Assembly (NCBI GenBank): GCA_029259715.1
Contig: JAJDEP010000012.1
Coordinates: 62,001 to 126,000 of the forward strand
Reading direction: 5' to 3'
Length of the DNA stretch: 64,000 bases
DNA from: Planctomycetota bacterium
GTDB taxonomy: Bacteria > Planctomycetota > B15-G4
A model generated the notes under the pieces. That model searched no databases and had not been told where the DNA came from. It saw nothing but the letters and a program-made list of their open reading frames with translations. The stretch's first letter is position 1. Each line of letters begins with the position of its first letter. Below are positions 6,299-35,430 of the stretch, one piece after another. The position numbers and the translations under genes were made by a program.

Positions 6299-6374
6299 GA
6301 CCGGATGGGTTGCCCACCCGCCGCCCACCCGCCGCCCACCGCGGCGCCCTCTCGTCAGCCCGGAGTTGCCCACG

Positions 6375-8784: not shown

Positions 8785-8785
8785 G

Positions 8786-9370: not shown

Positions 9371-9410
9371 CTCTCTCTGCTCCTGTGACTTCCCCTTGTG
9401 AGGCCCCTCC

Positions 9411-14535: not shown

Positions 14536-14539
<4 letters not shown>
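12119..14539 (+). CDS. Membrane sensor histidine kinase (pair 2)
   Basis: 806 residues. The first transmembrane helix lies at about 14-32 and the second at about 337-360, around a 300-residue periplasmic region. A HAMP domain (about 361-412) leads into a PAS-type domain (about 434-550). That domain is unusual in holding several Cys and His: HHVCHDG near 475, SCFGC near 499-503 and a Cys at about 512. HisKA has His near 574 in VVAHELNNPLAS, and HATPase_c shows VNLVMNGIQA, DTGSGI and GTGLGLS. A Gly-Ala-Asp stretch encoded by a hexanucleotide repeat sits in the periplasmic part. The stop overlaps the regulator start (ATGA). The pair is followed by the second sigma-54 promoter, so it should control the nitrate respiration operon. 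Confidence 0.93.
12411..12458 (+). repeat. Hexanucleotide tandem repeat inside sensor kinase 2
   Basis: Eight units of CAGGCG (units 6 and 8 are CAGACG) run in frame with the kinase gene and encode alternating Ala and Gly/Asp in the periplasmic domain, about residues 98-113. Gain or loss of units would change linker length by two residues without breaking the frame. Confidence 0.85.
14483..14512 (+). repeat. 15-bp tandem duplication at the kinase 2 C-terminus
   Basis: CCGGTCGTCGAGAAT occurs twice in direct succession, followed by a partial third copy. It encodes PVVEN-PVVEN-PAVDG in the tail of the kinase, beyond the ATPase domain. Confidence 0.8.
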
Positions 14540-16268: not shown

Positions 16269-16284
16269 TGGCACGGCCCTTGCA
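16269..16284 (+). promoter_or_regulatory. Sigma-54 (-24/-12) promoter of the nitrate respiration operon
   Basis: TGGCACGGCCCTTGCA is a full match to the sigma-54 consensus TGGCACGNNNNTTGCW. GG is at 16270-16271 and GC at 16282-16283, 10 bp apart. Transcription should start near 16295, about 27 nt before the ATG of the cytochrome c gene. It differs from the module A promoter at only two positions. Confidence 0.9.
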
Positions 16285-16321: not shown

Positions 16322-17215
16322 ATGGGCAAGACGACGGGCAGGTGGACACTGGCGTTGGCCGCGGGCCTGCTGCTCGGCGGCACCGCCGCCGCCCAGGGCG
16401 CCAGCGACGAGGCCTACGAATACTTCGCGCGCAACTGTGTGAGCTGCCACACCATCGGCGGCGGCCCCCTCGCCGGCCCCGACCTGGCCGGCCTGCTCGA
16501 CCGCCGCGACCGCGACTGGCTGAGCGCCTTCCTGCTCGACCCGGCCGGCGTCATCGACAGCGGTGACGTCTATGCCCAGGCGCTGCTGCGCGACGCCCGG
16601 GGCGTCTACATGCCGACCCCGCCCGGCATCACGGCCGACCTCGCCGACAAGCTCCTCACCGTCATCGCGGTGGAAGACGGCCTCGACAAGAGCCGCTTCG
16701 CCGGCCTGCAGCTCTCCGACCGGCCGCTCACCCCCGTCGACATCGCCCTCGGACGCCAGCTCTTCAATGGCACGACCGCCTTCGCGAGCGGCTCGCCGGC
16801 CTGCTTCGCGTGCCACACCGTCGAAGGCGCCGCCGGCTTCGGGGGCGGACGGCTCGGCCTCGACCTGACCACCGTCTACGCGCGCATGGAGGGCCGCAAG
16901 GCGCTCGGCGCCTGGCTGGGCGCGCCGCCATCGCCGGTGATGGCGCCCCTGTTCCAGGACGCGCCCCTCGACGCCGACGAGATCCTGGCGTTGACGGCCT
17001 ACCTCAAGCACACGTCGGAGAGCGGCGTGGAGCAGGCGAGTTCGGGCGTGCTCGCCTTCCTGCTCACGGGACTCGGCCTCGCCGCCGTGCTGCTCGTGCT
17101 GTTCGACGTCGCCTGGAAGGACCGCTACCGCTCCACGCGGCGCACGCTCGTCGAGGGTCGACGCAGCCCGCGCCTCGCTTCCCGAGCGGTCGAAGGAATG
17201 GAGGGCACACCGTGA
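16322..17215 (+). CDS. Membrane-anchored diheme cytochrome c
   Basis: 297 residues from the ATG at 16322. A cleavable or anchoring signal peptide ends near TAAAQGAS. Two haem-binding motifs are present, CVSCH (39-43) and CFACH (161-165), each in a separate class I-like domain, with Met ligands likely downstream. A transmembrane helix near 247-270 ([17 protein letters not shown]) anchors the protein with a basic cytoplasmic tail. It is the first gene after the sigma-54 promoter and overlaps narG (GTGA). A leading cytochrome c is unusual for respiratory narGHJI. It fits either an electron acceptor for alternative complex III or a partner of the NarGHI-type enzyme, as in some nitrite-oxidiser clusters. 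Confidence 0.9.
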
Positions 17216-20200
17216 CCGATCCGCTCACCACCGACCGCAGCGTCGGCAACAACCCCGACATCCCCACGGGACCGGTCGGACCCGGCAACCCCTGGATCCA
17301 GGACAGCGTCGACCCCAAGACCCGCTCGTGGGAGGAGTTCTACCGCAACCGCTGGCAGCACGACAAAGTCGTGCGCAGCACCCACGGCGTCAACTGCACG
17401 GGCTCGTGCTCGTGGAACATCCACGTCAAGGACGGCATCGTCGCGTGGGAGATGCAGGCGCTGGACTACCCGCGCCTCGAGAGCGGCATCCCTGCCTACG
17501 AGCCGCGCGGGTGCCAGCGCGGCATCAGCTACTCGTGGTACCTCTACAGCCCGCTGCGGGTGAAGTACCCCTACGTGCGCGGCGCCCTGCTCGACCTGTG
17601 GCGCGAGGCGCGCAACGTGCACGACGACCCGGTCGACGCCTGGAAGTGGCTGCAGTCGGATCCCGAGAAGCGCGCGCGCTACCAACGCGCCCGCGGCAAG
17701 GGCGGCCTGCGCCGGTGCAGTTGGGACACCGCGCTCGAGATCATCTCCGCCTCGACGGTGCACACCGTCAAGGAGCACGGCCCCGACCGCGTGGCCGGCT
17801 TCTCGCCCATCCCCGCCATGTCGATGGTCAGCTACGCCGCCGGCTCGCGCATGTTGCAGCTGCTGGGCGGCGTGTCGCTCTCCTTCTACGACTGGTACTG
17901 CGACCTGCCCAATGCCTCTCCCGAGACCTGGGGTGAGCAGACCGACGTGAACGAGTCGGCCGATTGGTACCACTCCAAGTTCCTGGCCGTCATGGGCAGC
18001 AACCTGAACATGACGCGCACGCCCGACGTGCCCTTCGCCAGCCAGGCCCGCACCAACGGCACGAAGATGGTGGTGTTCTCGCCGGACTTCAACCAGGTGG
18101 CGAAGTACGCCGACGAGTGGATCGCGCTCAACGCCGGCCAGGACGGCGCGTGGTGGATGGCGGTGAACCACGTGATCCTGAAGGAGTTCCACCACGAGCA
18201 GCAGGAGCCGTTCTTCCTCGACTACGTGGCCCGGTTCACCGACTCGCCCTACCTGGTCGAGATCAGCCCCAAGGGCGGCGCCTACGAATCGGGCCGCATG
18301 CTGCGCGCCGGGCGCCTCACGACCTACGCCGACGAGCAGCACGGCGAGTGGAAGTTCCTGCAGTGGGACCGCAACGACGACCGCCCCAAGATGCCCATGG
18401 GCAGCTCGGGCCACCGCTGGCAGGACCAGAAGGGCCAGTGGAACATGAAGCCCGAGGACGGCAAGGACGGCAGCCCCATCGACGCCGAGCTGACCTTCCT
18501 CTCGAAGAACGACGAGGTCGTGCAGGTGCGCTTCGACGACTTCGCCGGCGGTGGCTCGACCCACCGCGGCGTGCCCGTGCGCACGCTGCAGACCGACGAC
18601 GGCCCCGTGAAGGTGGCCACGGTCTACGACCTGCTCATGGCCCAGTACGGCGTGCCCCGCGGGCTGCCGGGCGACTACCCCGAGAGCTACGACGACGACG
18701 CCGTCTACACGCCGGCCTGGGCCGAGCGCTACACAGGCATCGACCGGGCGACCATCACGCGCTTCGCCCGCGAGTGGGCCTCCACCGCCAAGCACACCGG
18801 TGGCAAGTGCACGGTCATCATCGGCGCCGGCATCAACCACTGGTACCACGCCAACCTGATGTACCGCGCCGCCATGCACGCGCTCATGTTCTGCGGGTGC
18901 GTGGGTACAAATGGTGGAGGGCTCGCCCACTACGTCGGCCAGGAAAAGCTGGCGCCCATGGAGTCGTGGTCGTCCATCGCCATGGCCAAGGACTGGTATC
19001 CGCCGTCACGCCTGCAGAACGCGCCGAGCTGGCACTACGTGCACACCGACCAGTGGCGCTACGAGCGCAGCTTCTGCGACTACCACACCGTCCCCGAGGA
19101 CCAGGCCGAGGGCAGCCTGGCCGAGGGCCACACGATAGACGCGAACGTGCGCGCGGTGCGCAACGGCTGGCTGCCCTTCTACCCGCAGTTCGACAAGAGC
19201 CCGCTGGAGGTCTGCCGCGACGCGCAGGCTGCCGGCGCCGACAGCAACGCCGAGATCGTCGACTACGTGCGGGACAAGCTCGCCAAGCGCGACCTGACCT
19301 TCTCCATCGAACGGCCCGACGCCGAGGAGAACTGGCCGCGGGTCTGGTTCATCTGGCGCGGCAATGCCCTCATGTCGTCGGCGAAGGGGCACGAGTACTT
19401 CCTCAAGCACTACCTGGGCACGCACGAGAACACGATCTCGCAGGACCTCGCCGAGGGTCACGTGAAAGAGGTCGAGTGGTTGGAGCACGCGCCCACCGGG
19501 AAGATGGACCTCGTCGTCGACCTCAACTTCCGCATGGACACGTCGGCGCTCTACTCCGACATCATCCTGCCCGCGGCCACCTGGTACGAGAAGGCCGACC
19601 TCAACAGCACCGACATGCACAGCTTCATCCACCCGCTGGCCAAGGCCGTGCCGCCGTGCTGGGAGAGCCGCTCCGACTGGGACATCTTCAAGGCCATCGC
19701 CAAGGGTGTGAGCGACCTGGCGCCCAAGCACCTGCCGGGCAAGCACAAGGACGTGATCACGCTCCCGCTGGCCCACGACTCGCCGGCAGAGATCGCGCAG
19801 CCCGAGATCAAGGACTGGGCGCGAGGCGAGTGCGAGGCCATCCCGGGCAAGACCATGCCGGGCCTGAAGGTCATCGAGCGCGACTACGAGAACCTCCACA
19901 ACCAGTTCATCTCCTACGGACCGCTGGTGAGGGAGGCCGGCCTCGGCGCGCATGGCACCCACTACGCCGTCGACGACGTCTACGACGACGCGCTCGAGCA
20001 CGGCCCGACGCAGTCGTGGGGCGGCGGCAAGTACCCGTCGCTGAAGCAGGACACCGAGGTCTGCGACGTGGTCCTCAACTTCGCCACCGTCACCAACGGC
20101 GAGCTGGCCTGGCGTTCGTACAAGGACATGGAGACCAAGACCGGGCTCGAGCTGGCCGACCTCGCCGAGAAAAGCCGCTCGGTGCGCACCAACTACCAGG

Positions 20201-20907
20201 ACCTGCAGGCCCGACCGCGACGCCTGCTCAACAGCCCCATGTGGTCGGGGCTCACCGAGAACGGCCGGGCCTACGCGCCCTTCACCTACAACCGCGAGAA
20301 GCTCGTGCCCTGGCGCACGCTCACCGGTCGGCAGCACTTCTACCTCGACCATGAGGGGTACATCGCGTTCGGCGAGCACCTGCCCACCTACAAGCCCAAG
20401 CCGCGGCCGGACGCCTACGCCGACCTGGTCTTCAGCGAGGGGATAGGCAAGACGCTGCAGCTCAACTACCTCACGCCCCACGGCAAGTGGCACATCCACT
20501 CGACCTACGGCGACAACCACCGCATGTCGACGCTGTCACGGGGCTGCGAACCCTTCTGGATCAACGACAAGGACGCGGCCTCCATCGACATCGAGGACAA
20601 CGACTACGTCGAGGTGCACAACGACCACGGCGTGGTGGTCACGCGGGCGGCCGTCTCGGCGCGCATCCCGCGCGGCATCTGCATCATCTACCACTCGCCC
20701 GAGCGCACGCTCTCGGTGCCCAAGAGCCCGCTGCGCAACAAGCGCCGCGCCGGCGGCCACAACAGCCTCACGCGCACCCGGCTCAAGCCGAACCTGATGG
20801 TCGGCGGCTACGGCCAGTTCACCTACCACTTCAACTACTGGGGCCCGACGGGCTGTAACCGGGACACGCACATCCTCGTGCGTAAGTGCCCCGAGCTCAT
20901 CTGGTGA
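17212..20907 (+). CDS. narG: Respiratory nitrate reductase alpha subunit (NarG type)
   Basis: 1231 residues, close to the 1247 of E. coli NarG, from the GTG at 17212 overlapping the cytochrome stop. There is no twin-arginine signal, so the active site faces the cytoplasm. The FS0 cluster ligands are H58, C62, C66 and C101 (HGVNCTGSC ... GC). The molybdenum ligand is Asp231 in [13 protein letters not shown], followed by the NarG signature [15 protein letters not shown]. It binds Mo-bis-MGD and reduces nitrate to nitrite with electrons from NarH. Homologous cytoplasm-facing enzymes also work as nitrite oxidoreductases, and motif reading alone does not decide the direction. The open frame upstream of 17212 is a shadow of the cytochrome gene. 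Confidence 0.96.
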
Positions 20908-20928
20908 CCCGGCAACCGAGGAACTGAA

Positions 20929-22419
20929 ATGGACGTCCGCTCACAGATCGCGCTGATCTTCCACCTCGACAAGTGCATCGGTTGCCACACCTGCAGCGTC
21001 GCGTGCAAGAACATCTGGACCGACCGCAAGGGCACCGAATACATGTGGTGGAACAACGTCGAGACCAAGCCGGGCACCGGCTATCCGACGCGCTGGGAAG
21101 ACCAGGAGAACTACAAGGGCGGCTGGGAGCTCAAGGGCGGCAAGCTGCGCCTGAAGAGCACGGGGCGCGGCCGCATCATCCCCAACATCTTCCACAACCC
21201 GTCCATGCCCAGCATGGACGACTACTACGAGCCCTGGACCTACCGCTACGAGGACCTGTTCACCGCCCCCGAGGGCGATGACCAGCCCATCGCCCGCGCG
21301 GTGTCGATGGTGACGGGCGAGCCCATCGACGTGGAGGCCGGCCCCAACTGGGACGACGACCTCGGCGGCTCGCCGATCTACGCCGAGAACGACCCCAACC
21401 TCGAGGAGCTGACGCCCGAGGTGAAGCAGATGATGTTCGAGATCGAGCGCATGGCGTTCTTCTATCTCCCGCGCATCTGCAATCACTGCCTGAACCCGAG
21501 CTGCGTGGCCAGCTGCCCCTCGGGAGCGATGTACAAACGCGGTGAGGACGGCGTGGTGCTGCTCAACCAGGAACGCTGCCGCGCCTGGCGCAGTTGCGTC
21601 TCGGCCTGCCCCTACAAGAAGACCTACTACAACTGGTCCACGGGCAAGAGCGAGAAGTGCATCCTCTGCTTCCCGCGGCTCGAGTCGGGTCAGGCGCCGG
21701 CGTGCTTCCACTCCTGCGTCGGGCGCATCCGCTACCTCGGCAACATCCTCTACGACGCCGACAAGATCGTGGAGTGCGCGAGCCGCCCCGACAACGAGCT
21801 GGTGGACGCCCAGCGTGAGCTGATCCTCGACCCGAACGACCCCGAGGTCATCGCGGCCGCGCGCAAGAACGGCATCTCCGACGGCATCATCGACTCGGCC
21901 CAGAACTCGCCGGCCTACCGCTTCGCCAAGGAGTGGAAGCTGGCCCTGCCGCTGCACGTCGAGTTCCGCACCTTCCCCATGCTGTTCTACGTCCCGCCGC
22001 TGATGCCGGTCATCGCCAACCAGGACAGCGGCTCGGTGCGCAACGAGACCGAGGACCTCTTCGCCGACATCGAGAAGGCGCGGGTGCCCATCAAGTACCT
22101 GGCGCGGCTGTTCTCGGCCGGCAACGAGGGCAAGGTCCGCTACGCCCTGCGCAAGCAGCTCGCCGTGCGCCTGTGGCGCCGCCACAAGACCGTCGGCGAC
22201 ATCTCCGCTGAGCAGGCCGAGCGCGCGTTGCTCGAGGCCGAGTGCAGCCCCGAGGAAGCCGAGGCCATCTACCAGCTCACCGCCCTCGCCTCCATGGAGG
22301 ACCGCGTGGTCGTGCCGCCGGCGCAGCGCGAGATGGCCATCGAAGCCCTCGAGGACCCGCTCGAGTTCAAGCAGTCCACCGGCTTCGGGTTCCTCACCGG
22401 GCCGGCCCGGGGAGCCTGA
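20929..22419 (+). CDS. narH: Nitrate reductase beta subunit (iron-sulfur, NarH type)
   Basis: 496 residues. Four cysteine clusters are visible: C16-C19-C22-C26 (CIGCHTCSVACK), C184-x2-C187-x4-C192-x3-C196 (CNHCLNPSCVASC), C217-x2-W220-x2-C223-x3-C227 (CRAWRSCVSAC) and CILCF...CFHSC. The Trp in place of a Cys in the third set is the NarH signature for a [3Fe-4S] centre. The protein carries electrons from the NarI haems to NarG. It follows narG by 21 bp, with a short GAGGAACTGAA ribosome-binding region. Confidence 0.96.
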   Translation: MDVRSQIALIFHLDKCIGCHTCSVACKNIWTDRKGTEYMWWNNVETKPGTGYPTRWEDQENYKGGWELKGGKLRLKSTGRGRIIPNIFHNPSMPSMDDYYEPWTYRYEDLFTAPEGDDQPIARAVSMVTGEPIDVEAGPNWDDDLGGSPIYAENDPNLEELTPEVKQMMFEIERMAFFYLPRICNHCLNPSCVASCPSGAMYKRGEDGVVLLNQERCRAWRSCVSACPYKKTYYNWSTGKSEKCILCFPRLESGQAPACFHSCVGRIRYLGNILYDADKIVECASRPDNELVDAQRELILDPNDPEVIAAARKNGISDGIIDSAQNSPAYRFAKEWKLALPLHVEFRTFPMLFYVPPLMPVIANQDSGSVRNETEDLFADIEKARVPIKYLARLFSAGNEGKVRYALRKQLAVRLWRRHKTVGDISAEQAERALLEAECSPEEAEAIYQLTALASMEDRVVVPPAQREMAIEALEDPLEFKQSTGFGFLTGPARGA

Positions 22420-22421
22420 GC

Positions 22422-23003
22422 ATGAGACCGAACGCAGACGTCCACGACGCCCTGGCCCGGCTGGTCGAGTATCCCCGCGACGGTTGGTTCGAATCGATGC
22501 GGGAAGCCTCGCTGGTCATCGGCGCGAGTTGTCCCGAGGCGGCCGAGCTGTTGACCCCGTTCCTCACCTTCGCGGCGGACCGTCCGCTGTGGGAGCTCGA
22601 AGAGCACTTCACGCGCACCTTCGACAACTCCGACGAGCGCGCCCTCGACATGGGCTGGCACGCCTTCGGCGAGACCTACACCCGGGGCTCGTTCATGGCG
22701 GCCATGCGCGGGCGCCTGCGCGAGACCGGCGTCGAGGAGAACGGCGAGCTGCCCGACCACCTGAGCCACATGCTCGCCCTGGTCGGCCGCTGCCCCGAGG
22801 ACGAGGCCGCGGGACTGGCCGGCGACATCATGGCGCCGTCGGTGGCGAAGGTGCGCGAGGCGCTGGTGAAGCGGAGCGACCCCTGGGCCCACGTGCTCGC
22901 CACCGTCCTGGCGGTGCTCGCGCTGCACGAGCCGGACACGGCCCCCCACCAACCGGCGAGCGCCAACGCGCGCGACACCGGCGAGGACGACGCCCATGCA
23001 TGA
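22422..23003 (+). CDS. narJ: Nitrate reductase assembly chaperone (NarJ/TorD type)
   Basis: 193 residues from the ATG at 22422. It is an all-helical protein with the TorD-family pattern: LARLVEYPRDGW near the start, WELEEHFTRTFDNSD near residue 60 and PDHLSHMLALVGRCP in the middle. NarJ is a cytoplasmic chaperone needed for insertion of the Mo cofactor into NarG and is not part of the final enzyme. Its place between narH and narI and its 8-bp overlap with narI are the standard narGHJI order. Confidence 0.92.
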   Translation: MRPNADVHDALARLVEYPRDGWFESMREASLVIGASCPEAAELLTPFLTFAADRPLWELEEHFTRTFDNSDERALDMGWHAFGETYTRGSFMAAMRGRLRETGVEENGELPDHLSHMLALVGRCPEDEAAGLAGDIMAPSVAKVREALVKRSDPWAHVLATVLAVLALHEPDTAPHQPASANARDTGEDDAHA

Positions 23004-23685
23004 CGAGCTGCTCTTCGCGATCCTGCCCTACGTCGCCATGGGCGTGTTCCTGATCATGACCATCCAGCGCTATCGCCAGCGCACCTTCACCTACTCCAGC
23101 CTCAGCTCGCAGTTCCTCGAGAACCGGCACCACTTCTGGGGCTCGGTGCCGTTCCACTACGGCCTGCTGTTCGTGCTGTTCCTGCACCTGGCGGGGCTGT
23201 TCATCCCCGACGTGATCCTGGCCTGGAACGCCGCGCCCCTGCGGCTGTTCATCACCGAGGCCACCGGCCTGGCCATGGCCGTGATCACGCTCATCGGGCT
23301 GGGCAACATCGTGCTGCGACGCATGGGCGACACCAAGTCGCGCACCGTCACCTCCGTGAGCGACTGGATCGTCTACGCCCTCATCGGCGTGCAGGTGATC
23401 TCAGGCATCGCCGTCGCCGTATTCCACGGCTGGGGCAGCTCGTGGTTCGCCACCTCGCTCACGCCCTGGCTCTGGTCGCTCTTCAAGCTCCAGCCGGAGA
23501 TCGGCTACGTCACCGCCCTGCCCTGGATGGTGAAGCTCCACATCGTCAACGCCTGGGTGCTGATCGGGTTCTTCCCCTTCACGCGCCTGGTGCACGTGCT
23601 CGTGGTGCCCAACCCCTACCTGTGGCGCCGCACCCAGGTCGTGCTCTGGAACTACGACCGCCACAAGGTCCGGAGCAAGGACTGA
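22996..23685 (+). CDS. narI: Nitrate reductase gamma subunit, cytochrome b (NarI type)
   Basis: 229 residues with five transmembrane helices. The paired haem-ligand His are visible in HFWGSVPFHYGLLFVLFLHLAG (helix 2) and KLHIVNAWVLIGFF...LVH (helix 5), matching E. coli NarI closely (LHxxx...PFTRLVHVLVVP here). It anchors NarGH to the inner membrane and oxidises quinol on the periplasmic side, so turnover generates proton-motive force. The start ATG lies inside the last codons of narJ. Confidence 0.95.
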   Translation: MHDELLFAILPYVAMGVFLIMTIQRYRQRTFTYSSLSSQFLENRHHFWGSVPFHYGLLFVLFLHLAGLFIPDVILAWNAAPLRLFITEATGLAMAVITLIGLGNIVLRRMGDTKSRTVTSVSDWIVYALIGVQVISGIAVAVFHGWGSSWFATSLTPWLWSLFKLQPEIGYVTALPWMVKLHIVNAWVLIGFFPFTRLVHVLVVPNPYLWRRTQVVLWNYDRHKVRSKD

Positions 23686-23724
23686 CCCGGCCCGTTCCGG
23701 ATCACTTCTGCGGAAAGGAACCTG

Positions 23725-25383
23725 ATGACCGCCCACGACGCCCCTCCGGAACGCCTCCCCCGGCACACGCTGCCCGCATGGGATGTGGAGGACGAGGGCT
23801 TCTGGCAGAGCAAGGGCAAGCAGATCGCGAGCCGCAACCTGTGGATCTCGATCCCCAACCTGCTGTGCGGCTTCTCGGTGTGGCTGTACTGGGGCATGGT
23901 CGCGAAGTTCATCCAGCGCGCGCACTTCGCGGACGGGTCGCTGTTCGACTTCACCTTCATGAACGACGGGCAGACCTTCGGCGGCGACGCCTACCGCGGC
24001 CTGCTGTTCACCTTGCCGGCCGTGGCCGGCCTCGCCGGCGCGACGCTGCGCATCCCCAACTCGTTCATGATCGCCCTCTGCGGCGGGCGCAACGTCAAGT
24101 TCATGACGACCCTGCTGCTGTTGCTGCCCGCCCTCGGCGCCGGCATCGCCCTGCAGGACCCGCACACGCCATTCTCCACCTTCGTCGTGCTCGCCATGTT
24201 GTCGGGCGTGGGCGGCGGCGCCTTCGCGTCGTCGATGTCCAACATCAGCTTCTACTACCCGAAGCGCATGCAGGGACTCGCGCTGGGCCTCAACGCGGGC
24301 CTCGGCAACGCCGGCGTGTCGGTGATGCAGTTCCTGCTGCCCTGGATCATCACCTTCGGCGCCTTCGGTTCTCTCGGCGGCGAGCCCTACCAGGTTGGTG
24401 ACTCCCCGCTCTGGATCCAGAACGCCGCCCTGGTGTGGGTGCCGGTGCTCGCGTTCCTGGTGGTCCTCGCCTTCCTGTTCATGAACAACATGCCGCAGCA
24501 CAAGTGCGGCCCGACGACCGTCGCCGTGGCCCGCTACCTGTGGCTCACGGTGCTCGGCTTCATCGGCACCGGCGTGGCGGTGTGGCTGCTGATCACACCG
24601 TGGGGCAACTTCCCCGTCCTGCTCAAGACCTTCCTGATCCTCCTGATCGCCGTGGTCGTGACGCTCACGTGCATGAAGACGCTCACGCCCAAGGAGACCA
24701 AGGAAGGCCTCAACAAGCAGTTCGCCATCTTCAACAACAAGCACAACTGGGTCATGACCTGGCTGTACACGATGACGTTCGGTTCGTTCATCGGTTACGC
24801 CAACGCGTTCCCCAAGCTCATCGACGACGTCTTCGGCGTGATCCGCGTCGGTCCCGACGGCAGCCCGCTGGTCGAGGGCATCCTCAACCCGAACGCGCCG
24901 ATCTCGTCGAAGTACATCTGGATCGGCGCGGGCGTGGGCGCCCTGATCCGTCCCGTGGGCGGCTGGCTCAGCGACAAGCTCGGCGGCGCGCGCGTCACCC
25001 ACTGGGACACCATCGTCATGATCGGCGCCACCATCGGCGCGGGCTGGTTCGTCTCGCAGGCCAGCCAGTCGCCCGACCCGCAGCAGTTCTTCATGCCCTT
25101 CCTGCTGCTCTTCGTACTGCTCTTCGCCACCACCGGCATCGGCAACGGCTCCACCTTCCGGATGATCCCGATCATCTTCGAGAAGGAGCAGGCCGGACCG
25201 GTGCTGGGTTGGACGTCCGCCATCGCCGCCTACGGCGCCTACCTGATCCCCAAGATCTTCGCGACGCAGATCGAGGCCGGCACGCCCGAGTACGCGCTCT
25301 ACGGCTTCGCCGGTTACTACGCCAGCTGCCTGGTCGTGAACTGGTGGTTCTACGCGCGCAAGGGAGCTGAGATCCCGTGCTGA
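23725..25383 (+). CDS. narK: Nitrate/nitrite transporter, MFS (NarK/NarU type)
   Basis: 552 residues with about 12 transmembrane helices. A soluble N-terminus contains WDVEDEGFWQSKGKQIASRNL. The nitrate signature regions are SGVGGGAFASSMSNISFYYP and TTGIGNGSTFRMIP, with the substrate-binding Arg expected in helices 2 and 8. A long insertion (FAIFNNKHNWVMTWLYTMTFGSFIGYANAFP) begins the second half, as in NarK/NarU. It exchanges or co-transports nitrate and nitrite across the inner membrane for the cytoplasm-facing NarG. It shares 7 bp with the next gene. Confidence 0.94.
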   Translation: MTAHDAPPERLPRHTLPAWDVEDEGFWQSKGKQIASRNLWISIPNLLCGFSVWLYWGMVAKFIQRAHFADGSLFDFTFMNDGQTFGGDAYRGLLFTLPAVAGLAGATLRIPNSFMIALCGGRNVKFMTTLLLLLPALGAGIALQDPHTPFSTFVVLAMLSGVGGGAFASSMSNISFYYPKRMQGLALGLNAGLGNAGVSVMQFLLPWIITFGAFGSLGGEPYQVGDSPLWIQNAALVWVPVLAFLVVLAFLFMNNMPQHKCGPTTVAVARYLWLTVLGFIGTGVAVWLLITPWGNFPVLLKTFLILLIAVVVTLTCMKTLTPKETKEGLNKQFAIFNNKHNWVMTWLYTMTFGSFIGYANAFPKLIDDVFGVIRVGPDGSPLVEGILNPNAPISSKYIWIGAGVGALIRPVGGWLSDKLGGARVTHWDTIVMIGATIGAGWFVSQASQSPDPQQFFMPFLLLFVLLFATTGIGNGSTFRMIPIIFEKEQAGPVLGWTSAIAAYGAYLIPKIFATQIEAGTPEYALYGFAGYYASCLVVNWWFYARKGAEIPC

Positions 25384-26057
25384 AGTCGCTCTCCGTCAAC
25401 GCGCGCATCTTCCTCGTGGTGGCCGTCGGGTTCGGCGTCTTCGCCATCGCCGCCAGCGCCGACTTCCAGGCGCCCAACGTGCACCAGGGCTATGCGCCCG
25501 AGCAGCCCATCGCCTACAGCCACCGCACCCACGCGGGCGAGCTCGGCATCGACTGCCTCTACTGCCACTACGGCGCCCGCACGAGCCCGGTGGCCGGCAT
25601 CCCCGCCACCGGCCTGTGCATGAACTGCCACGCCACCGTGACGGCGGGTCTCGATGCGGTGGTGGCCGAGCGCGAGCAGGCCGAGGCGGAGAGCCGCCCG
25701 GCTGCGACCATCCTCTCGCCCGAGATCGCCAAACTCTGGGCGGCCCAGGGGCTCGACGTCAACGGCCAGCCGGCCGGTGAGCCCCACCCGATCCCCTGGG
25801 TGCGTGTGCACAACCTGCCCGACTTCGTGGCCTTCGACCACAGCGTGCACGTCAACCGCGGGCTGGCCTGCGCCACGTGTCACGGGCCGGTGCAGACCAT
25901 GGAGCGCGTGCGCCAGGAGAGCGACCTGAGCATGGGCTGGTGCCTCGACTGCCACCGCGGCAAGGCCGCCGACCCGACCCTCGTGCTCAACGCCGAACAC
26001 GGGCGCCTGCCCGCCGGCGAGCACGTCAGCACCGATTGCAGCGCCTGCCACTACTGA
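25377..26057 (+). CDS. actA: Alternative complex III subunit A, pentaheme cytochrome c
   Basis: 226 residues from a GTG at 25377 inside the narK stop region. A single N-terminal helix (IFLVVAVGFGVFAIAAS) acts as signal anchor. Five CxxCH motifs are present: CLYCH, CMNCH, CATCH, CLDCH and CSACH, exactly the number in ActA. Conserved His in YSHRTHAGELGIDC and FDHSVHVNRGLAC would be distal ligands, as in class III (c7-type) cytochromes. In the complex ActA sits in the periplasm on ActB and takes electrons from its iron-sulfur chain. It is the first of six act functions in uninterrupted order. Confidence 0.93.
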   Translation: MLKSLSVNARIFLVVAVGFGVFAIAASADFQAPNVHQGYAPEQPIAYSHRTHAGELGIDCLYCHYGARTSPVAGIPATGLCMNCHATVTAGLDAVVAEREQAEAESRPAATILSPEIAKLWAAQGLDVNGQPAGEPHPIPWVRVHNLPDFVAFDHSVHVNRGLACATCHGPVQTMERVRQESDLSMGWCLDCHRGKAADPTLVLNAEHGRLPAGEHVSTDCSACHY

Positions 26058-26066
26058 CGCCCCGCG

Positions 26067-29000
26067 ATGGACATCGAGCCAGGAACCCCGAACCGAGCCG
26101 ACATGACGACGCCGTCCGAGCAACATTGGTTCAAGGACCCCGACGCCCACCGCAGCGCCGTCGGCAGCCGTGCCGACGACCGCGCGGCGAGCCGCGAAGG
26201 ACACGCCGACGCGCGCGACACGCAGTTCGACCGGCGTTCCTTCCTGCGCCTGGTGGGTTTCAGCGTCGCCGCCGCGGGCGTGTCCGGCTGCTCCCCTGCG
26301 CCACCGCAGACGGTCATGGCCCTGTTCGAGCCGCCCGTCGAGATCGTCCCCGGGCGCGCCTACTGGATCGCCACCACGAGCTGGGCCGACGGCTCGGGCA
26401 GCGGCGTGCTGGTGCGTTGCCGTGACGGACGCCCGATCAAGGTGGAGGGCAACCCGAGCCACCCGGTCAACCAGGGCGGCCTCACCGCGGCGTGCCAGGC
26501 CTCCTTGCTCGCCCTCTACGACAGCCACCGCTTCGACGGCCCCCGTCGCGACGGCGCGGCTGCCACCTGGGACGAGGTCGACACGGCCGTGCGCGCGAAG
26601 CTCGATGAGGTCCGCAGCGCGGGCGGAACCGTGCGGCTGCTCACCTCGACGCTGACCGGGCCGTCGACCCTCGAACAGATCGACGCCCTGCTCGCCAGCG
26701 TGCCCGACGGACGGCACGTCATGTACGACGCCCTCTCGTGCTCGGCGCTGCTCGACGCCCAGCAGGCACTGCGCGGGGTGCGGGTCCTGCCGCGCTACGA
26801 CTTCTCGAGAGCCAAGGTGCTCGCGGCCTTCGACGCCGACGTGCTCGGCACCTGGATCTCCCCCGCCGGCTTCGCCGCCGACCGCCAGCAAGCCCGCGAC
26901 GTGCACGCCGAGCCGCCGCGCATGAGCCGGCACTGGCAGCTCGAGGCGCGGCTCTCGCTCACCGGCACCCGGGCCGACCGGCGCGTGCGCCTCGCCCCCT
27001 GGGAGACGACCGCCGCCCTGGCCGAGCTCGGCAGCGAGCTGGCCGGTTTCGCCGGCGTCACCGCGCCGGGCCCGCGTCCCGACGCGTCGGCCCTGCCGCA
27101 GGCCACGCGCACGGCCTTGCACGAACTCGCGCAGGAACTGTGGGCCCAGCGTACCGAGAGCCTCGTCGTGTGTGGCACCAACGCTCGCGACGCGCAGCTG
27201 CTCACCGCGTGGATCAACGCGCAGCTCGGCAGCGAAGGCACGACCTTCCACCTCGACACACCGTCGCTGCAACGTCAGGGCGACGACGCCGCCCTGCAAC
27301 GCCTGCGCGACGAATTGCTGACAGGCGCCGTCGACCTCCTGATCGTGGCCGGCGCGAATCCCGCCTACGATCTGCCGGACTTCGCCGAGGCCCTCGGCCA
27401 GGCCGGCACGCTGGTCAGCCTGGCGTCACTGCCAGACGAGACCTCGGCCCTCGCGACCATCGTCTGCCCTGAGCCCCACGAGCTCGAGCGCTGGGACGAC
27501 GCCGAACCGATCGCCGGGCTCTACAGCACCACCCAGCCGACGGTCCCCGCGCTGCGGGACACACGCACCCTGCGCGCCAGCCTGGCCCGCTGGCGCGGTG
27601 ACGCGCGCGACGACCGTGAGTTGCTCGTCGATCACTGGCGACGCGAGCTCGACAGCCGACGCCCGTCGCCGCGCACCGGCTTCGATGCCTGGTTCCATGC
27701 CGTGCTCGAGCGGGGCTGGACCGAGCTCCCGTCCGCGCAGCCCTTTCGGCCCGCGGCGTTCAGGCCGGCGCCGGTGGCCGCGGCGCTCACGCGCATCGCC
27801 GCCAACGCCGGGGCGCCCGCCGACGGCGCACTGGGCCTGGTGCTGCACCCGAAGGTCGGTCTGCTCGACGGACGTGGCGCCCACAACCCCTGGCTGCAGG
27901 AGCTGCCCGACCCGGTCACCAAGGTCGTGTGGGACAACCACGTCGACCTCTCGCCGGCGACGGCCGAGCGCCTGGGCCTGCGCACCGGCGACATCGTCAC
28001 CGTCAGCGCGACCGATGACGCACCCTCGGCAGACTTGACCCTTCCCGTGCTCGTCCAGCCCGGCCAGGACGATCGAGTGGCGGCCATCGCCCTGGGTTAC
28101 GGCCGCGCAGGGACGGACCGCTTCACCGCGGTGGGCCCGGAGTGGCTGCAGGGTCGCCGCACGGTGGAGCCCGGCGGGACGATCGGCGCCAACGTTGCCC
28201 CCTGGCTGCGCTGGCGTGCGGGCGCCCTCGATTACAGCGGCCGCACGGTGCGCCTCACCGCCACCGGTGGCCGGCACGAGCTGGCCATCACCCAGGACCA
28301 CCACAACCTCTCGGTGCCCGCCCACCTCGCACCGCCCGGCGGCGAGGTCCGCGACGCCGTGCGCCTGGTGACCTTCCCTCAGCTGCAGGCCGACCCCGAG
28401 CACGTCCTGGGCGGCGGCCACACGCCCGTCGGCGAACTCTGGGACGACGACCACATCCCCGCCGGCCACCACTGGGGCATGGCCATCGACCTCTCCGCCT
28501 GCACCGGCTGCTCGGCCTGCGTGGTGGGTTGCCAGGCCGAGAACAACATCCCCGTGGTGGGCCGCGACGAGGTGCGCCGCCACCGCGAGATGAGCTGGCT
28601 GCGCATCGACCGCTACTACGCCGACCAACCCGACGGCGGCGTCGACGTCGTGCACCAGCCGATGATGTGTCAGCACTGCGCCCACGCCCCCTGCGAGACG
28701 GTGTGCCCGGTGCTCGCGACCATGCACAGCAGCGAGGGCCTCAACACCCAGGTCTACAACCGCTGCGTGGGCACGCGCTACTGCGCCAACAACTGCCCCT
28801 ACAAGACGCGCCGCTTCAACTGGTTCGACTACGCCCACGACGACCAGCTGCTGAACATGGTGCTCAACCCGGAGGTCACCATCCGCAGCCGGGGCGTGAT
28901 GGAGAAGTGCTCGCTGTGCGTGCAGCGCATCCAGGGCGCCAAGGCCCTGGCCGGACGCGAGGGCCGCGAGCTCGCCGACGGCGACATCCAGACCGCCTGC

Positions 29001-29178
29001 CAGCAGAGCTGCCCGACCCGGGCCATCACCTTCGGCGACCTCAACGACCCGAACAGCGCCTTGTCGCGCCGCATCGCGACGGGTCGGTCCTACCGTGCGC
29101 TCGAGGAGCTCAACGTCCAGCCCGGCGTGCACTACCTGGCGGACGTCCGCAACGACGCCGGAAGCAAGGGAGGCGGGC

Positions 29179-29186
<8 letters not shown>
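26067..29186 (+). CDS. actB: Alternative complex III subunit B, molybdopterin-like/iron-sulfur fusion
   Basis: 1039 residues. An N-terminal twin-arginine signal (FDRRSFLRLVGF, near residues 53-64) leads to a lipobox-like GVSGC. ActB is therefore exported folded and probably lipid-anchored. Residues of about 90-760 form the molybdopterin-oxidoreductase-like domain, in which this family carries no Mo. The last 250 residues are a NrfC/PsrB-like ferredoxin domain with CTGCSACVVGC, CQHCAHAPCETVC, CVGTRYCANNC and CSLC...CQQSC, for four clusters. An alternative start is ATG 26103 (MTTPSEQHWF), which has family-like N-terminal sequence. It lies 9 bp after actA and overlaps the next gene by 8 bp. Confidence 0.93.
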
Positions 29187-31157
<1,971 letters not shown>

Positions 31158-31164
<7 letters not shown>

Positions 31165-31736
31165 GCACGCGCCTGTCATTCCTGATCGTGGCTGTGGTTG
31201 TGCTGGCCGTCCTGTTCGGCCTCGCGGCCCTGTCCCGCCCCGATCCGAGCCGACGCAACATCGAGGTGTTCACCGAGATGGCCTACAGCAAGGCCTACGA
31301 GACCCTCACCGCCAACCCGAACTTCGCGGACGGGCGCACGACCCAGGACCTCGTTCCCGGGGTGGTGCCGCGCGGGGCCTCGTTCTTCCCCTACGGCGCG
31401 GGCGCCGCCGAAGCCCGGCGCGCCGGCGACGCGTTGACCGACCCCCTGGGACCGGACAGCGCCGCCCTCCGGGCCGAGGGCGCCGAGCTCTACCGCATCT
31501 ACTGCGCGCTGTGCCACGACGCCCGCGGCGGCGGCGCCGGGCCCGTCGTGTTGCGCGGCATGCTCCCGCCCCCCTCGCTCCACGGCGACCGGGCCCTCGG
31601 CATGGCGGACGGCGAGATCTTCCACGTGCTCACCCGCGGTCAGGGGAACATGGCGGCCTACGCCGCCCAACTCGACACCCACGAACGCTGGCAGGTGATC
31701 CGCCACGTTCGGCGCCTGCAGGCGGAGGGACCGTGA
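31158..31736 (+). CDS. actE: Alternative complex III subunit E, monoheme cytochrome c
   Basis: 192 residues from the ATG at 31158, overlapping the stop of the fused actCD gene. An N-terminal anchor helix (FLIVAVVVLAVLFGLAAL) is followed by PDPSRRNIEVFTEMAYSKAYE, typical of ActE (M-x-x-S...A near the start). One haem motif, CALCH, is at 116-120, with the likely axial Met in GNMAAY (near residue 156). ActE is a class I cytochrome thought to pass electrons from ActA to a soluble or oxidase-bound acceptor. GTGATG links it to actF. Confidence 0.92.
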
Positions 31737-32920
31737 TGGACGCCTTACGACCCGGAGCCTCGCAACCCATGGGCCCGGGGCTGCGCACGAGCCTGCGCCT
31801 CGCCGCCGTGCTCGGCGGACTGGTCTTCCTCGTGGGCCTCTTCGCCGCGCCCGAGCGCGTGTGGGGCGGCTTCCTGATGGCCTTCGTCTACCTCGCGGGC
31901 CTGGCCCTGGCCGGCCCCGTGTTCCTGGCCTTCCTCAACCTCGTCGGCGCGCGCTGGTCGGTGGTCGTGCAGCGGGTCCCCGAGGCGATGGCCGCGGCCC
32001 TGCCCCTGGCGGGCCTGCTCGGCCTGGTGCTGCTCTTCGGCACCCACAACCTCTACGAGTGGTCACACGAAGCCGCCGTCGAGCACGACGCGCTGCTGCA
32101 GCAGAAGTCGGGCTGGCTGAACACCACCGGATTCGCCCTGCGGATGCTCGCGATCTTCGCCCTGTGGATCCTGTTCTCGCGCAAGGTCGTGAGCCTCTCG
32201 CGCCGGTTCGCCGCCTGCGGCGACGCCGAACTGGGACGCACGCGCGCACGCTGGTCGGCGGCCTTCATCGCGGTGGTGGCGATCACTTACTCCGTGGCCA
32301 GCATGGACTGGCTCATGTCCCTCGAGCCGCATTGGTTCTCCACCCTCTTCGCCCTGATGCACTTCTCCGGGATGGCCGCCGCCGGTTGTGCCGCCGCCCT
32401 GCTGATGGTGCTGCTGCTCGAGCGCCGCGGCGCGCTGCGGGGCGTGCTCAACGCCGAGCACCTGCACGACATGGGCAAGCTGCTGTTCGCCCTCACCCTG
32501 ATCTGGGCGTATTGCTGGTTCTGCCAGTACATGCTCATCTGGTACACGGACATCCCCGAAGAGACCACGCACTACCTGCTGCGCAAGCAGGGTCCGTGGT
32601 GGCTGCTCGTGCAGGCAACGCTGGTGCTGAAGTGGGGCGTGCCCTTCGTCGCGCTCATGGCGCGGCGGACCTGTCGCAACAGGAAGGTCCTCGCCCAGGC
32701 CGCCGGCGCCGTGCTGCTCGGCCACGCCCTCGACCTCTCCGTGCAGGTCGGGCCGCCGCTCATGGGCGCCGCTCCGGTGCTGGGGCTGTGGGAGATCGCG
32801 CCGGTGGTCGGCGCCGTCGCCCTCTTCTTCGAGCGCACCCTGTCCGCCCTGTCCCGCGTCCCCGCCGTCCCCGCGACGCACCCGCACCTGAGCGACAGCC
32901 TCACCTATCAGACGCCTTGA
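31736..32920 (+). CDS. actF: Alternative complex III subunit F, quinol-binding membrane protein
   Basis: 394 residues from the ATG at 31736 (GTG 31733 is also in frame). There are about ten transmembrane helices, a paralogue in fold of ActC/NrfD. Features include FGTHNLYEWSHEAAVEHDALLQQKSGW and MDWLMSLEPHWFSTLFALMHFSG, both characteristic ActF blocks with conserved His and Asp along a possible proton path. The ORF is open upstream, but that segment lies across actE. With ActA to ActE this completes the complex: quinol oxidation coupled to cytochrome c reduction, replacing the bc1 complex. Confidence 0.92.
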   Translation: MDALRPGASQPMGPGLRTSLRLAAVLGGLVFLVGLFAAPERVWGGFLMAFVYLAGLALAGPVFLAFLNLVGARWSVVVQRVPEAMAAALPLAGLLGLVLLFGTHNLYEWSHEAAVEHDALLQQKSGWLNTTGFALRMLAIFALWILFSRKVVSLSRRFAACGDAELGRTRARWSAAFIAVVAITYSVASMDWLMSLEPHWFSTLFALMHFSGMAAAGCAAALLMVLLLERRGALRGVLNAEHLHDMGKLLFALTLIWAYCWFCQYMLIWYTDIPEETTHYLLRKQGPWWLLVQATLVLKWGVPFVALMARRTCRNRKVLAQAAGAVLLGHALDLSVQVGPPLMGAAPVLGLWEIAPVVGAVALFFERTLSALSRVPAVPATHPHLSDSLTYQTP

Positions 32921-32965
32921 CCGACCCGACGCCCTGACCCGGAAGCGAGAGCGGACCCCACCCCC

Positions 32966-34768
32966 ATGGACGTGAAGAACAAGGCCACCAGCATCAGTCT
33001 CTTCAGCCTGAAGACGCGCCCCATGCGCGCCTTCCACATGAGCTGGTTCGCGTTCTTCCTGTGCTTCTTCGCCTGGTTCGGCATCGCGCCGCTGATGGCC
33101 GTCGTGCGCGACGAGCTGTCCCTCACCAAGGAGCAGATCGGCAACACGATCATCGCCTCGGTGGCCATCACCATCGTCGCGCGACTGTTCATCGGCTGGC
33201 TCTGCGACCGCATCGGCCCCCGGCTCAGCTACACCTTCCTGCTCATCTTCGGGTCGTTGCCGGTGATGGGCATCGGGCTCGCCACCGACTACATGAGCTT
33301 TCTGTTCTTCCGGCTCGGCATCGGCGTGATCGGCGCGTCCTTCGTGATCACCCAGTACCACACGTCGGTCATGTTCGCGCCCAACTGCGTGGGCACGGCC
33401 AACGCGACCTCGGCCGGCTGGGGCAACCTGGGCGGCGGCGTGACCCAGATGGTCATGCCGCTGGTCATGGCGGCCTTCCTCGCCTTCGGTTTCACCGACG
33501 AGTCGAGCTGGCGACTGTCGATGGTCGTGGCCGGCGCCGTCTGCTTCCTCGTCGGCGTGGCCTACTACTTCTTCACCACCGACCTGCCCGACGGCAACTT
33601 CAAGGACCTGCGCGCCCGGGGCGAGATGCCCTCGGTCGAGAAGACCAAGGGCGCCTTCCTGCTGGCCATGAAGGACAAGCGCGTCTGGGCCCTGTTCATG
33701 ATCTATGCCGCGTGCTTCGGCATCGAGCTGACCATCAACAACATCGCCGCGCTCTATTACATGGACTCCTTCGGCCTCGGCCTGACGACGGCGGGGCTGG
33801 TGGCGGGCCTGTTCGGATTGATGAACGTCTTCGCCCGCACCCTGGGCGGCTTCGTCAGCGACAAGTTCGTGCAAAAGCACGGCCTGAAGGGACGCGTCCG
33901 CTGGCTCTTCATCGCCCTGTTCATCGAGGGCGTCGCGCTGATCTTCTTCTCGCAGATGCGCGTCATCGCCCTGGCCATCCCGCTGATGATCGTGTTCAGC
34001 CTGTTCACGCAGATGTCCGAGGGCGCGACCTACTCCATCGTCCCGTTCATCAACAAGAAGGCCCTGGGGGCCGTGGCCGGCATCGTCGGCGCCGGCGGCA
34101 ACATGGGCGCCGTGGCCGCGGGCTTCCTGTTCCGCTCGCCGGACCTGACCTATCCACAGGCCCTGCTGATCCTGGGCGGAGCGGTCACGGTCCTCTCCTT
34201 CCTCGCCTGGGCGGTGACTTTCAGCCCCGAGACCGAGACGTCCGTCGCCAAGGAGCACGCCACGGCGATGGCGGCCCGTCGCAAGGCCATGGCCCATCGC
34301 AAGCCGCTGCGCGAACTCGTCCCGGGCCTCAAGCACATCCGGCCCATGGACGCGCTGCGCATCTACCTCGGCATCGCCCTGGTGCTCAAGGGCGTCTACT
34401 TCATCACGAACATGTCCGAGCTCGAGGGCACGCTGGGCGAAGGCATCGGGCAGGGACAGGCCATGATCGCCTGGTCGGTGGTGTTCGCCCACGTCATCGG
34501 TGGGGCCAGCCTGGCCCTGGGCTTCGTCACCCGCGTGGCGTCGGCGGCCAACGCCGTGATCCTGCTGGGTGCCGTCGTGGTCCACCTCACCGGGTCGTAC
34601 ACCGGAACGGTGGAAGGCAGCCTGCTGGGATCGAACACCGACTTCCAGCTGACCCTGTTCACCTTCTTCTCCCTCGCCCTGCTGGTCTGGCGCGGATCGG
34701 GCCCGCTCTCCCTCGATCACCTGCTGCGCCTCGACAGCGACAAGGAGCCCGACCTGTTCGCCGCCTGA
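32966..34768 (+). CDS. Second NarK-type transporter fused to a DoxX-like membrane domain
   Basis: 600 residues. Residues of about 20-445 are a 12-helix MFS nitrate/nitrite transporter of the NarK1 kind (SWFAFFLCFFAWFGIAPLM, the nitrate-signature-like GWGNLGGGVTQMVMPL and GAGGNMGAVAAGFLF). After a basic loop (MAARRKAMAHRKPLRELVPGL) comes a four-helix DoxX-like domain from about residue 460: RIYLGIALVLKGVYFI, HVIGGASLALGFVTRVASAANAVILLG and LTLFTFFSLALLVW. DoxX-family domains occur in quinone-linked and redox-stress membrane proteins. The fusion is the odd feature of this gene. The start has an 11-bp-spaced GGAAGCGAGAG region and lies 45 bp after actF. Confidence 0.87.
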   Translation: MDVKNKATSISLFSLKTRPMRAFHMSWFAFFLCFFAWFGIAPLMAVVRDELSLTKEQIGNTIIASVAITIVARLFIGWLCDRIGPRLSYTFLLIFGSLPVMGIGLATDYMSFLFFRLGIGVIGASFVITQYHTSVMFAPNCVGTANATSAGWGNLGGGVTQMVMPLVMAAFLAFGFTDESSWRLSMVVAGAVCFLVGVAYYFFTTDLPDGNFKDLRARGEMPSVEKTKGAFLLAMKDKRVWALFMIYAACFGIELTINNIAALYYMDSFGLGLTTAGLVAGLFGLMNVFARTLGGFVSDKFVQKHGLKGRVRWLFIALFIEGVALIFFSQMRVIALAIPLMIVFSLFTQMSEGATYSIVPFINKKALGAVAGIVGAGGNMGAVAAGFLFRSPDLTYPQALLILGGAVTVLSFLAWAVTFSPETETSVAKEHATAMAARRKAMAHRKPLRELVPGLKHIRPMDALRIYLGIALVLKGVYFITNMSELEGTLGEGIGQGQAMIAWSVVFAHVIGGASLALGFVTRVASAANAVILLGAVVVHLTGSYTGTVEGSLLGSNTDFQLTLFTFFSLALLVWRGSGPLSLDHLLRLDSDKEPDLFAA

Positions 34769-34887: not shown

Positions 34888-35430
34888 ATGACCCCCACCG
34901 ATTCGACCGCCCCGTCCTGCGCCCACGACCTCGATGCCTTTGGGATCCTGCGGCAATGCCACGACCACATCCTGTCGAAGCTCGAGGTGCTCGAGGCCGT
35001 GGCCGTCGACCTCGAGCGGCGCGCGGAGTTCTCCGACGCGGAACTGGCGCGGCTGTGCGACGTGATCACGATGCTCGACACCGCGATCCCCATCCACAGC
35101 GCGGACGAGGAGCAGACCCTGTTCCCCGCCCTGCGCGCGCGGCCGCCCTTCGAGGGCACCGAAGGCACGCCCATGGACTGCATGGAGCAGGAGCACGGGC
35201 TGCACAAGGCGCTCATGATCGCACTCAAGCGGGCCATCATGAAGCGCGACCCCGCGGCGACGGCGACGGCCGCGCGGCACATGGTGACCGAGTATCGGGG
35301 ACACATCGACAAGGAGAACTCGATCCTGTTCCCCATGGCCCAGCAGGTGCTGAGCGACCCCGCCGAGGTCCGCGCCCTGACCCTCGCCATGCAGGCGCGG
35401 CGCCGGGCTCTGGACGTCGACGCCTGCTAG
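34888..35430 (+). CDS. Hemerythrin-domain protein
   Basis: 180 residues from the ATG at 34888; an in-frame ATG at 34825 would add a basic Arg/Thr/Pro-rich stretch. The four-helix diiron fold is shown by HDHILSKLEVLE, HSADEEQTLFPAL, EQEHGLHKALMIALK and HIDKENSILFPMAQQ, which supply the His/Glu ligands. The pattern resembles the catalytic half of YtfE/RIC proteins that repair iron-sulfur clusters after nitric oxide damage, but the ScdA_N domain is absent. Position after the nitrate operon suggests NO sensing or protection. A 119-bp gap before it leaves open whether it shares the operon transcript. Confidence 0.88.
   Translation: MTPTDSTAPSCAHDLDAFGILRQCHDHILSKLEVLEAVAVDLERRAEFSDAELARLCDVITMLDTAIPIHSADEEQTLFPALRARPPFEGTEGTPMDCMEQEHGLHKALMIALKRAIMKRDPAATATAARHMVTEYRGHIDKENSILFPMAQQVLSDPAEVRALTLAMQARRRALDVDAC

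What the first reader, a model, noticed from the sequence alone, without database searches (positions are those of the whole stretch)
16322..34768. NarGHJI, NarK and a complete alternative complex III in one apparent sigma-54 operon
Eleven genes follow one promoter with overlaps or short gaps: diheme cytochrome c, narG, narH, narJ, narI, narK, actA, actB, actCD, actE, actF, then a second NarK-type gene. ACIII normally clusters with oxidase genes. Here it is wired to a nitrate/nitrite enzyme. The set could form a branch in which ACIII feeds periplasmic acceptors (nitrite, NO or N2O reductases elsewhere) while NarGHI uses the same quinol, or a supercomplex.
Basis: partly seen in the sequence, partly recalled or inferred. 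Interest (0 to 1): 0.78.

Follow-up and report, generated by a model that had tools for sequence, protein, structure and literature searches.

The report
Nitrate reductase operon carrying alternative complex III
In this uncultured planctomycete the genes for nitrate respiration sit in one gene block with a complete electron-transfer machine (alternative complex III) that is otherwise known as a partner of oxygen-using enzymes, and the same block recurs in at least four bacterial phyla, so this machine seems to have a nitrate-dedicated branch that had been noticed once but not recognised.

Summary
Window 16322-34768 carries a diheme cytochrome c, narGHJI, narK, actA, actB, fused actCD, actE, actF and a second NarK (with a DoxX tail), with overlaps or gaps of at most 45 bp, behind a perfect sigma-54 -24/-12 match and an NtrC-like regulator. 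ActA, B, C, D and F best match solved alternative complex III (ACIII) chains; ActC keeps all four quinone-site residues. The nar-act junction is conserved: 37 distinct loci, from Planctomycetota, Acidobacteriota, Ignavibacteriota, Fidelibacterota and one MAG labelled Pseudomonadota. Forty-one other ACIII loci carry cox1; none of these carries nar. Most nar-linked ACIIIs form one clade (SH-aLRT 100), and NarGH and ActBC distances track each other (Mantel r 0.91). One genome has both kinds of ACIII. The 5' half matches the Thermus narCGHJIK type. Linkage was reported in 2023 (PMC10732223, 13 instances) but read as a possible NrfAH-like nitrite reductase. Best reading: an ACIII dedicated to nitrate respiration, oxidising quinol and passing electrons through the NarC-type cytochrome to periplasmic acceptors. 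The acceptor in this genome is unidentified. Co-transcription and electron route are inferred. The sigma-54 site is not general among relatives; some nar operons lack act.

The parts
12119..14539 (+). membrane histidine kinase (HAMP, PAS, HisKA, HATPase)
   Evidence: Pfam; homologues precede nar in L185 and L186
14536..16032 (+). NtrC-like sigma-54-dependent response regulator
   Evidence: Pfam Response_reg, Sigma54_activat, HTH_8; NCBIfam; homologue beside nar in L036, L185-L187 and L197
16269..16284 (+). sigma-54 -24/-12 site TGGCACGGCCCTTGCA, perfect consensus
   Evidence: perfect sites also before the operon in L036 and L186
16322..17215 (+). NarC-type cytochrome c: 2 CXXCH, N-terminal signal, C-terminal membrane helix
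   Evidence: same position as the cytochrome c of the Thermus nar operon, 41% identity over the aligned part
17212..20907 (+). narG, nitrate reductase alpha, no Tat signal seen
   Evidence: 1264 bits to E. coli NarG 1q16/3egw against 83 bits to Kuenenia NxrA 7b04; 62% identity to Thermus NarG
20929..22419 (+). narH, iron-sulfur beta subunit
   Evidence: Pfam Fer4_11 and Nitr_red_bet_C
22422..23003 (+). narJ chaperone
   Evidence: Pfam Nitrate_red_del
22996..23685 (+). narI, diheme b gamma subunit
   Evidence: Pfam; the four heme-ligand histidines of E. coli NarI align with His; Lys86 aligns with Arg
23725..25383 (+). narK1, nitrate/nitrite MFS transporter
   Evidence: TIGR00886
25377..26057 (+). 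actA, pentaheme cytochrome c
   Evidence: 5 CXXCH; best PDB hit 6btm_A
26067..29186 (+). actB, Tat/lipoprotein signal (RRSFLR...GC), MopB-like plus Fe-S domains
   Evidence: PDB hits 6btm_B, 8k9e_B, 6f0k_B; signal read
29179..31164 (+). actCD, fused NrfD-like quinol subunit and ActD
   Evidence: PDB 6btm_C 620 bits and 6lod_D; Pfam NrfD and ActD
31158..31736 (+). actE, monoheme cytochrome c with N-terminal membrane helix
31733..32920 (+). actF, second NrfD-like membrane subunit
   Evidence: PDB 6f0k_F, 6btm_F
32966..34768 (+). narK2, NarK-family transporter with C-terminal DoxX domain
   Evidence: long homologues (about 1.78 kb) in many nar-act loci
34888..35430 (+). hemerythrin-domain protein, 119 bp downstream, possibly same unit
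   Evidence: Pfam; hemerythrins also near nar-act in L056 and L188

Best explanation
A genuine alternative complex III that has become the dedicated quinol:cytochrome c oxidoreductase of a NarC-type nitrate respiration operon. NarGHI oxidises quinol and reduces nitrate in the cytoplasm, with two NarK proteins moving nitrate and nitrite. In parallel, ACIII oxidises quinol at ActC and passes electrons through the ActB Fe-S clusters and ActA/ActE hemes to periplasmic cytochrome c, most likely the NarC-type diheme cytochrome encoded first in the operon. From there they go to periplasmic acceptors that differ by lineage (NrfA-type nitrite reductase in about half of the carriers, a NosZ-like protein in one). 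It would do what cytochrome bc1 does in other nitrate-respiring chains. Shown: gene identity, order, conservation, shared phylogeny. Inferred: co-transcription, direction of electron flow, NarC as partner, and the acceptor, which is not identified in this genome.
For: Each tested Act subunit best-hits solved ACIII; ActC carries the quinone-site residues corresponding to R. marinus His139, Ser164, Asp169, Asp253 (alignment, residue list). Tight junctions. 37 distinct nar-linked loci, 41 cox1-linked loci, none with both (duplicates L056 and L066 removed). A 37-row ActBC clade with SH-aLRT 100 holds 31 nar-linked rows, 2 with NarK only, 4 whose contig ends upstream, and no cox-linked row. NarGH/ActBC Mantel r 0.91, 0 of 2000 permutations as high. 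G029 carries a nar-linked (L052) and a cox-linked (L051) ACIII in separate clades. The caa3-type oxidase locus of this genome has no act genes. In Thermus, NarC is a fourth nitrate reductase subunit that binds NarI and is proposed as the bridge to nitrite and NO reductases (PMC7694296). NrfA-family cytochrome directly downstream of actF in Ignavibacteria L059. Strong NrfA hits in 13 of 26 nar-act genomes against 86 of 366 others, Fisher p 0.005, not corrected for kinship.
Against: No nitrite reductase was confidently found in this genome: no NirS, weak multicopper match only for NirK, no NrfA, no full-length NosZ; the MAG is 92% complete. The genome has two Rieske/cytochrome b loci with multiheme cytochromes, so ACIII is not its only quinol:cytochrome route. 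Family f56 keeps the nar operon without act. A single clade of all nar-linked ACIIIs is rejected (AU p 0.0008), so linkage arose or was lost more than once. No expression or biochemical data.
Confidence: 0.6

Rival explanations
1. NarC-GHI and ACIII form one supercomplex, and ACIII electrons can enter the nitrate reductase itself through NarC and the NarI b hemes (or the reverse), adding ACIII energy conservation to nitrate reduction.
For: ACIII forms a supercomplex with the aa3 oxidase in F. johnsoniae (PMC8552683); Thermus NarC interacts with NarI in two-hybrid assays (PMC7694296); NarGH and ActBC distances track each other.
Against: NarI keeps its heme ligands, so it can take quinol by itself; family f56 and G205 have nar without linked act; no structural test was made.
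Confidence: 0.2
2. The enzyme runs as a nitrite oxidoreductase: electrons from nitrite pass NarG to NarI to NarC, and ACIII lifts some of them back to quinone or the caa3-type oxidase takes them.
For: Nitrobacter has a very similar gene cluster working as nitrite oxidoreductase (PMC7694296); PMC10732223 could not assign direction by sequence; the genome has a caa3-type oxidase.
Against: Nearest known enzyme found is the Thermus nitrate reductase, 62%; two NarK transporters; co-occurrence with NrfA in half of the carriers. Nitrobacter NxrA itself could not be put on the tree, and autotrophy genes were not searched.
Confidence: 0.07
3. ACIII is a general-purpose enzyme that also feeds the unlinked caa3-type oxidase; its place beside nar is regulatory convenience.
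For: It is the only ACIII found in this genome and the caa3-type oxidase has no ACIII of its own.
Against: Separate clade from cox-linked ACIIIs and repeated linkage across phyla; two Rieske/cytochrome b loci could serve the oxidase; G029 keeps both types.
Confidence: 0.1
4. [quoted passage not shown]
For: Proposed there from HHpred similarity and from linkage to nar.
Against: All tested subunits match solved ACIII subunits over most of their length; ActA is a pentaheme c7-type protein with no NrfA-family (PF02335) match.
Confidence: 0.02

Closest known systems
Thermus narCGHJIKT operon
   Same: Diheme membrane cytochrome c first, then narG, H, J, I and NarK-family transporters; NarG 62% identical.
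   Different: No act genes in the Thermus operon examined; different regulators. Here actA-F stand between narK and the second NarK.
Oxidase-linked ACIII of Rhodothermus marinus and Flavobacterium johnsoniae (6F0K, 6BTM)
   Same: Subunits ActA-F and ActC quinone-site residues.
   Different: Gene partner is NarGHI, not an aa3/caa3 oxidase; separate clade from the cox-linked ACIIIs in the tree; ActC and ActD fused.
Nar plus six-gene cluster of Oslofjord tunnel MAGs (PMC10732223)
   Same: Same arrangement, 13 instances; contigs with the OFTM isolate names of that study (OFTM49, OFTM5) carry the arrangement among the loci found here.
   Different: That paper proposed an NrfAH-like nitrite reductase or a respiratory-chain complex and did not identify it as ACIII, test its phylogeny or describe it outside its MAGs.
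Thermus Nrc complex (nrcDEFN) beside nar
   Same: Another membrane complex encoded next to nar, with proposed respirasome contacts through NarI (PMC7694296).
   Different: An NADH dehydrogenase, not a quinol:cytochrome c oxidoreductase.

Membership tests
Alternative complex III | ActA pentaheme cytochrome c | tested here: met
   5 CXXCH, best PDB hit 6btm_A
Alternative complex III | ActB: fused MopB-like and Fe-S domains with Tat/lipoprotein export | tested here: met
   Aligns to residues 52-1021 of 8k9e_B; RRSFLR and GC motif
Alternative complex III | ActB lacks the Mo-pterin and holds three 4Fe-4S and one 3Fe-4S cluster | not tested
   Cysteine motifs seen, ligand set not compared one by one
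Alternative complex III | ActC quinone-site residues His139, Ser164, Asp169, Asp253 (R. marinus numbering) | tested here: met
   All four identical in the alignment; list from PMC8076601
Alternative complex III | ActD, ActE (monoheme) and ActF present in one cluster | tested here: met
Alternative complex III | Quinol:cytochrome c oxidoreductase activity | not testable with these tools
   needs biochemistry
NarGHI respiratory nitrate reductase | NarG, NarH, NarJ, NarI set, NarG without export signal | tested here: met
   N-terminus read
NarGHI respiratory nitrate reductase | Direction nitrate reduction in vivo | not testable with these tools
   sequence does not separate it fully from Nitrobacter-type NXR
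Thermus-type narC operon | Membrane diheme cytochrome c as first gene before narG | tested here: met
Anammox/Nitrospira-type NXR | NxrA of the Kuenenia type | tested here: not met
   83 bits to 7b04 against 1264 bits to E. coli NarG
NrfAH nitrite reductase | NrfA-family catalytic cytochrome (PF02335) in the cluster | tested here: not met
   no PF02335 match for ActA; none in the genome
Sigma-54-controlled operon | -24/-12 site and NtrC-type activator | tested here: met
   sequence level only; activity not tested

The most novel reading that the evidence does not exclude
A distinct, horizontally shared branch of ACIII is dedicated to nitrate respiration and works as a physical supercomplex with a NarC-GHI nitrate reductase, which would make ACIII a respiratory hub without oxygen in several phyla and not only an aerobic enzyme.
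Probability: 0.25. Interest if true: 0.85.

Novelty: new variant of a known kind. Interest (0 to 1): 0.62.

Why it matters
[quoted passage not shown] A nar-linked ACIII clade spread over several phyla speaks against that premise. It also gives a chemically sensible identity to a recurrent cluster that had been read as a possible new nitrite reductase, and predicts how nitrate-respiring planctomycetes, acidobacteria and Marinimicrobia may feed periplasmic acceptors.

Tried and rejected
A sigma-54 pattern with the wrong spacing gave chance-level hits and was replaced. The TGGCACG-N4-TTGCW form was absent from all 137 loci held at that time; with the looser core TGGCAC-N5-TTGC, perfect sites appeared before the operon only in L036 and L186, so sigma-54 control as a general feature was dropped. 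A single clade of all nar-linked ACIIIs was tested and rejected. The NosZ scan with PF18764 was uninformative because no control rang. The NirK match was too weak to count. The chimeric NarG-ActC query scored only two candidates per genome, so its linkage count is a lower bound. No structure prediction was run, because single-chain models would not decide a supercomplex.

Full report
Observation. Window 16322-34768 encodes on the + strand a diheme cytochrome c, narG, narH, narJ, narI, narK, actA, actB, a fused actCD, actE, actF and a NarK-DoxX fusion. Gaps run from -8 to 45 bp, and narK1-actA overlaps by 7 bp. Upstream lie a membrane histidine kinase and an NtrC-like regulator, and a perfect sigma-54 site TGGCACGGCCCTTGCA at 16269-16284; the looser motif occurs 4 times in the window against 0.46 expected. 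No sigma-70-like site was found between 16000 and 35500, and terminator-like hits were at chance level. One operon is therefore likely but not proven.

Identity. The act genes are a real ACIII. ActA, ActB, ActC, ActD and ActF best match the chains of solved ACIIIs 6btm, 6f0k, 6lod and 8k9e. ActA has 5 hemes, ActE one, and ActB an RRSFLR...GC export motif. ActC keeps the residues equivalent to R. marinus His139, Ser164, Asp169 and Asp253 (list from PMC8076601). NarG scores 1264 bits against E. coli NarG and 83 against Kuenenia NxrA. NarI keeps its heme ligands.

Origin. The window lies in a 4.23 Mb, 92% complete genome whose close relatives include Planctomycetota MAGs. It has one ACIII, a caa3-type oxidase locus without act genes, a NOR-like heme-copper protein, and two Rieske/cytochrome b loci with multiheme cytochromes. 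The octaheme protein of one of these matches the HAO family.

Conservation. Among 58 relatives, the 9 genomes with this NarG all have act genes beside nar (one, G007, is split over two contigs, with narI on the act contig). In 392 genomes of the phylum, 26 have NarG and ActC on one contig about 8-14 kb apart, a lower bound because only two candidates per genome were scored (counted by hand, list). Family f56 carries HK-RR-cytc-narGHJI-narK without act, and its ACIII is oxidase-linked elsewhere. Of the loci classified, 39 are nar-linked (37 after removing two duplicates), 41 are cox1-linked, and none is both. The 37 span Planctomycetota, Acidobacteriota, Ignavibacteriota, Fidelibacterota and one MAG labelled Pseudomonadota. 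The locus set was chosen by similarity to the window's own proteins, so these counts are not an unbiased census.

Phylogeny. In the ActB+ActC tree a 37-row clade (SH-aLRT 100) contains the window and no cox-linked row; its four unlinked members (L042, L057, L060, L069) sit at contig ends. Five nar-linked loci (L052, L200-L203) fall outside it, and a single clade of all nar-linked loci is rejected (AU p 0.0008). NarG+NarH distances correlate with ActB+ActC distances (Mantel r 0.91, 0 of 2000 permutations). Part of that correlation may be shared descent of the genomes. However, groupings that cross phyla, such as L064 (Planctomycetota) with L072 (Acidobacteriota), appear in both trees, which suggests transfer as a unit. 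G029 holds one ACIII of each kind.

Mechanism. The 5' half equals the Thermus narCGHJIK type. There NarC is a diheme membrane cytochrome that binds NarI and is needed for NarG maturation. It is proposed to carry electrons to periplasmic nitrite and NO reductases while complex III is repressed (PMC7694296). Here ACIII is built into the same operon, between the two transporters. The simplest reading is that ACIII supplies NarC or another periplasmic cytochrome with quinol electrons during nitrate respiration, in parallel with NarGHI. Supporting hints are an NrfA-family cytochrome directly downstream of actF in L059, and NrfA in 13 of 26 nar-act genomes against 86 of 366 others (Fisher p 0.005, kinship not corrected). 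In this genome NirS, NrfA, a full-length NosZ and a confident NirK were not found, so the acceptor remains open; the octaheme cytochrome, the NOR-like protein and the caa3-type oxidase are candidates.

Prior art. PMC10732223 described nar upstream of a six-gene NrfD-type cluster 13 times in tunnel MAGs and suggested an NrfAH-like nitrite reductase or, alternatively, a respiratory-chain complex. Contigs bearing that study's OFTM isolate names are among the loci here. PMC10100899 states that ActB takes part exclusively in aerobic respiration. Literature searches of the open library found no paper naming a nar-linked ACIII clade; most subscription papers and all bioRxiv preprints were outside it.

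Verdict. Observation confirmed; interpretation partly supported; a new variant of a known kind, previously noticed but not identified. Tree methods were quick searches with approximate support.

Noticed in passing
window 32966-34768: NarK-family transporter fused to a C-terminal DoxX domain; long homologues of about 1.78 kb recur in many nar-act loci (L036, L039, L062, L065, L071, L194, L197).
   Followed up: partly
window 29179-31164: ActC and ActD are one ORF; ActC open frames are long (687-754 aa) in the three family-f1 genomes and mostly about 470-500 aa in other nar-act genomes.
   Followed up: partly
window 2702-11010: A second histidine kinase / NtrC-like pair with a perfect sigma-54-like site at 6283-6298, followed by an unassigned 242-aa ORF, a YtkA-like protein, a NapH-like protein (weak match) and a PF13372 porin; another PF13372 porin follows the NrfA-like gene in L059, and a NapH-like protein lies downstream of actF in L043.
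   Followed up: partly
window 56236-57192 (- strand): MoaA, molybdenum cofactor biosynthesis, about 21 kb from the operon.
   Followed up: no
L149:12869-14269 and the flanking Rieske/cytochrome b genes (G000 contig C20): HAO-like octaheme cytochrome beside a Rieske protein and cytochrome b; candidate nitrite-handling enzyme of this genome.
   Followed up: partly
L151:7992-14131 (G000 contig C8): Second Rieske/cytochrome b locus with a 1148-aa protein holding 8 CXXCH motifs and cytochrome c domains.
   Followed up: no
L210-L212, L217, L225 (family f24): ACIII loci with neither nar nor cox1 in the stretch, preceded or flanked by a NarC-like cytochrome c hit; they form the sister group of the nar-linked L200-L202.
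   Followed up: no
window 39209-46447 (- strand): Very long ORF (2412 aa) whose C-terminal part looks repetitive, function not examined.
   Followed up: no
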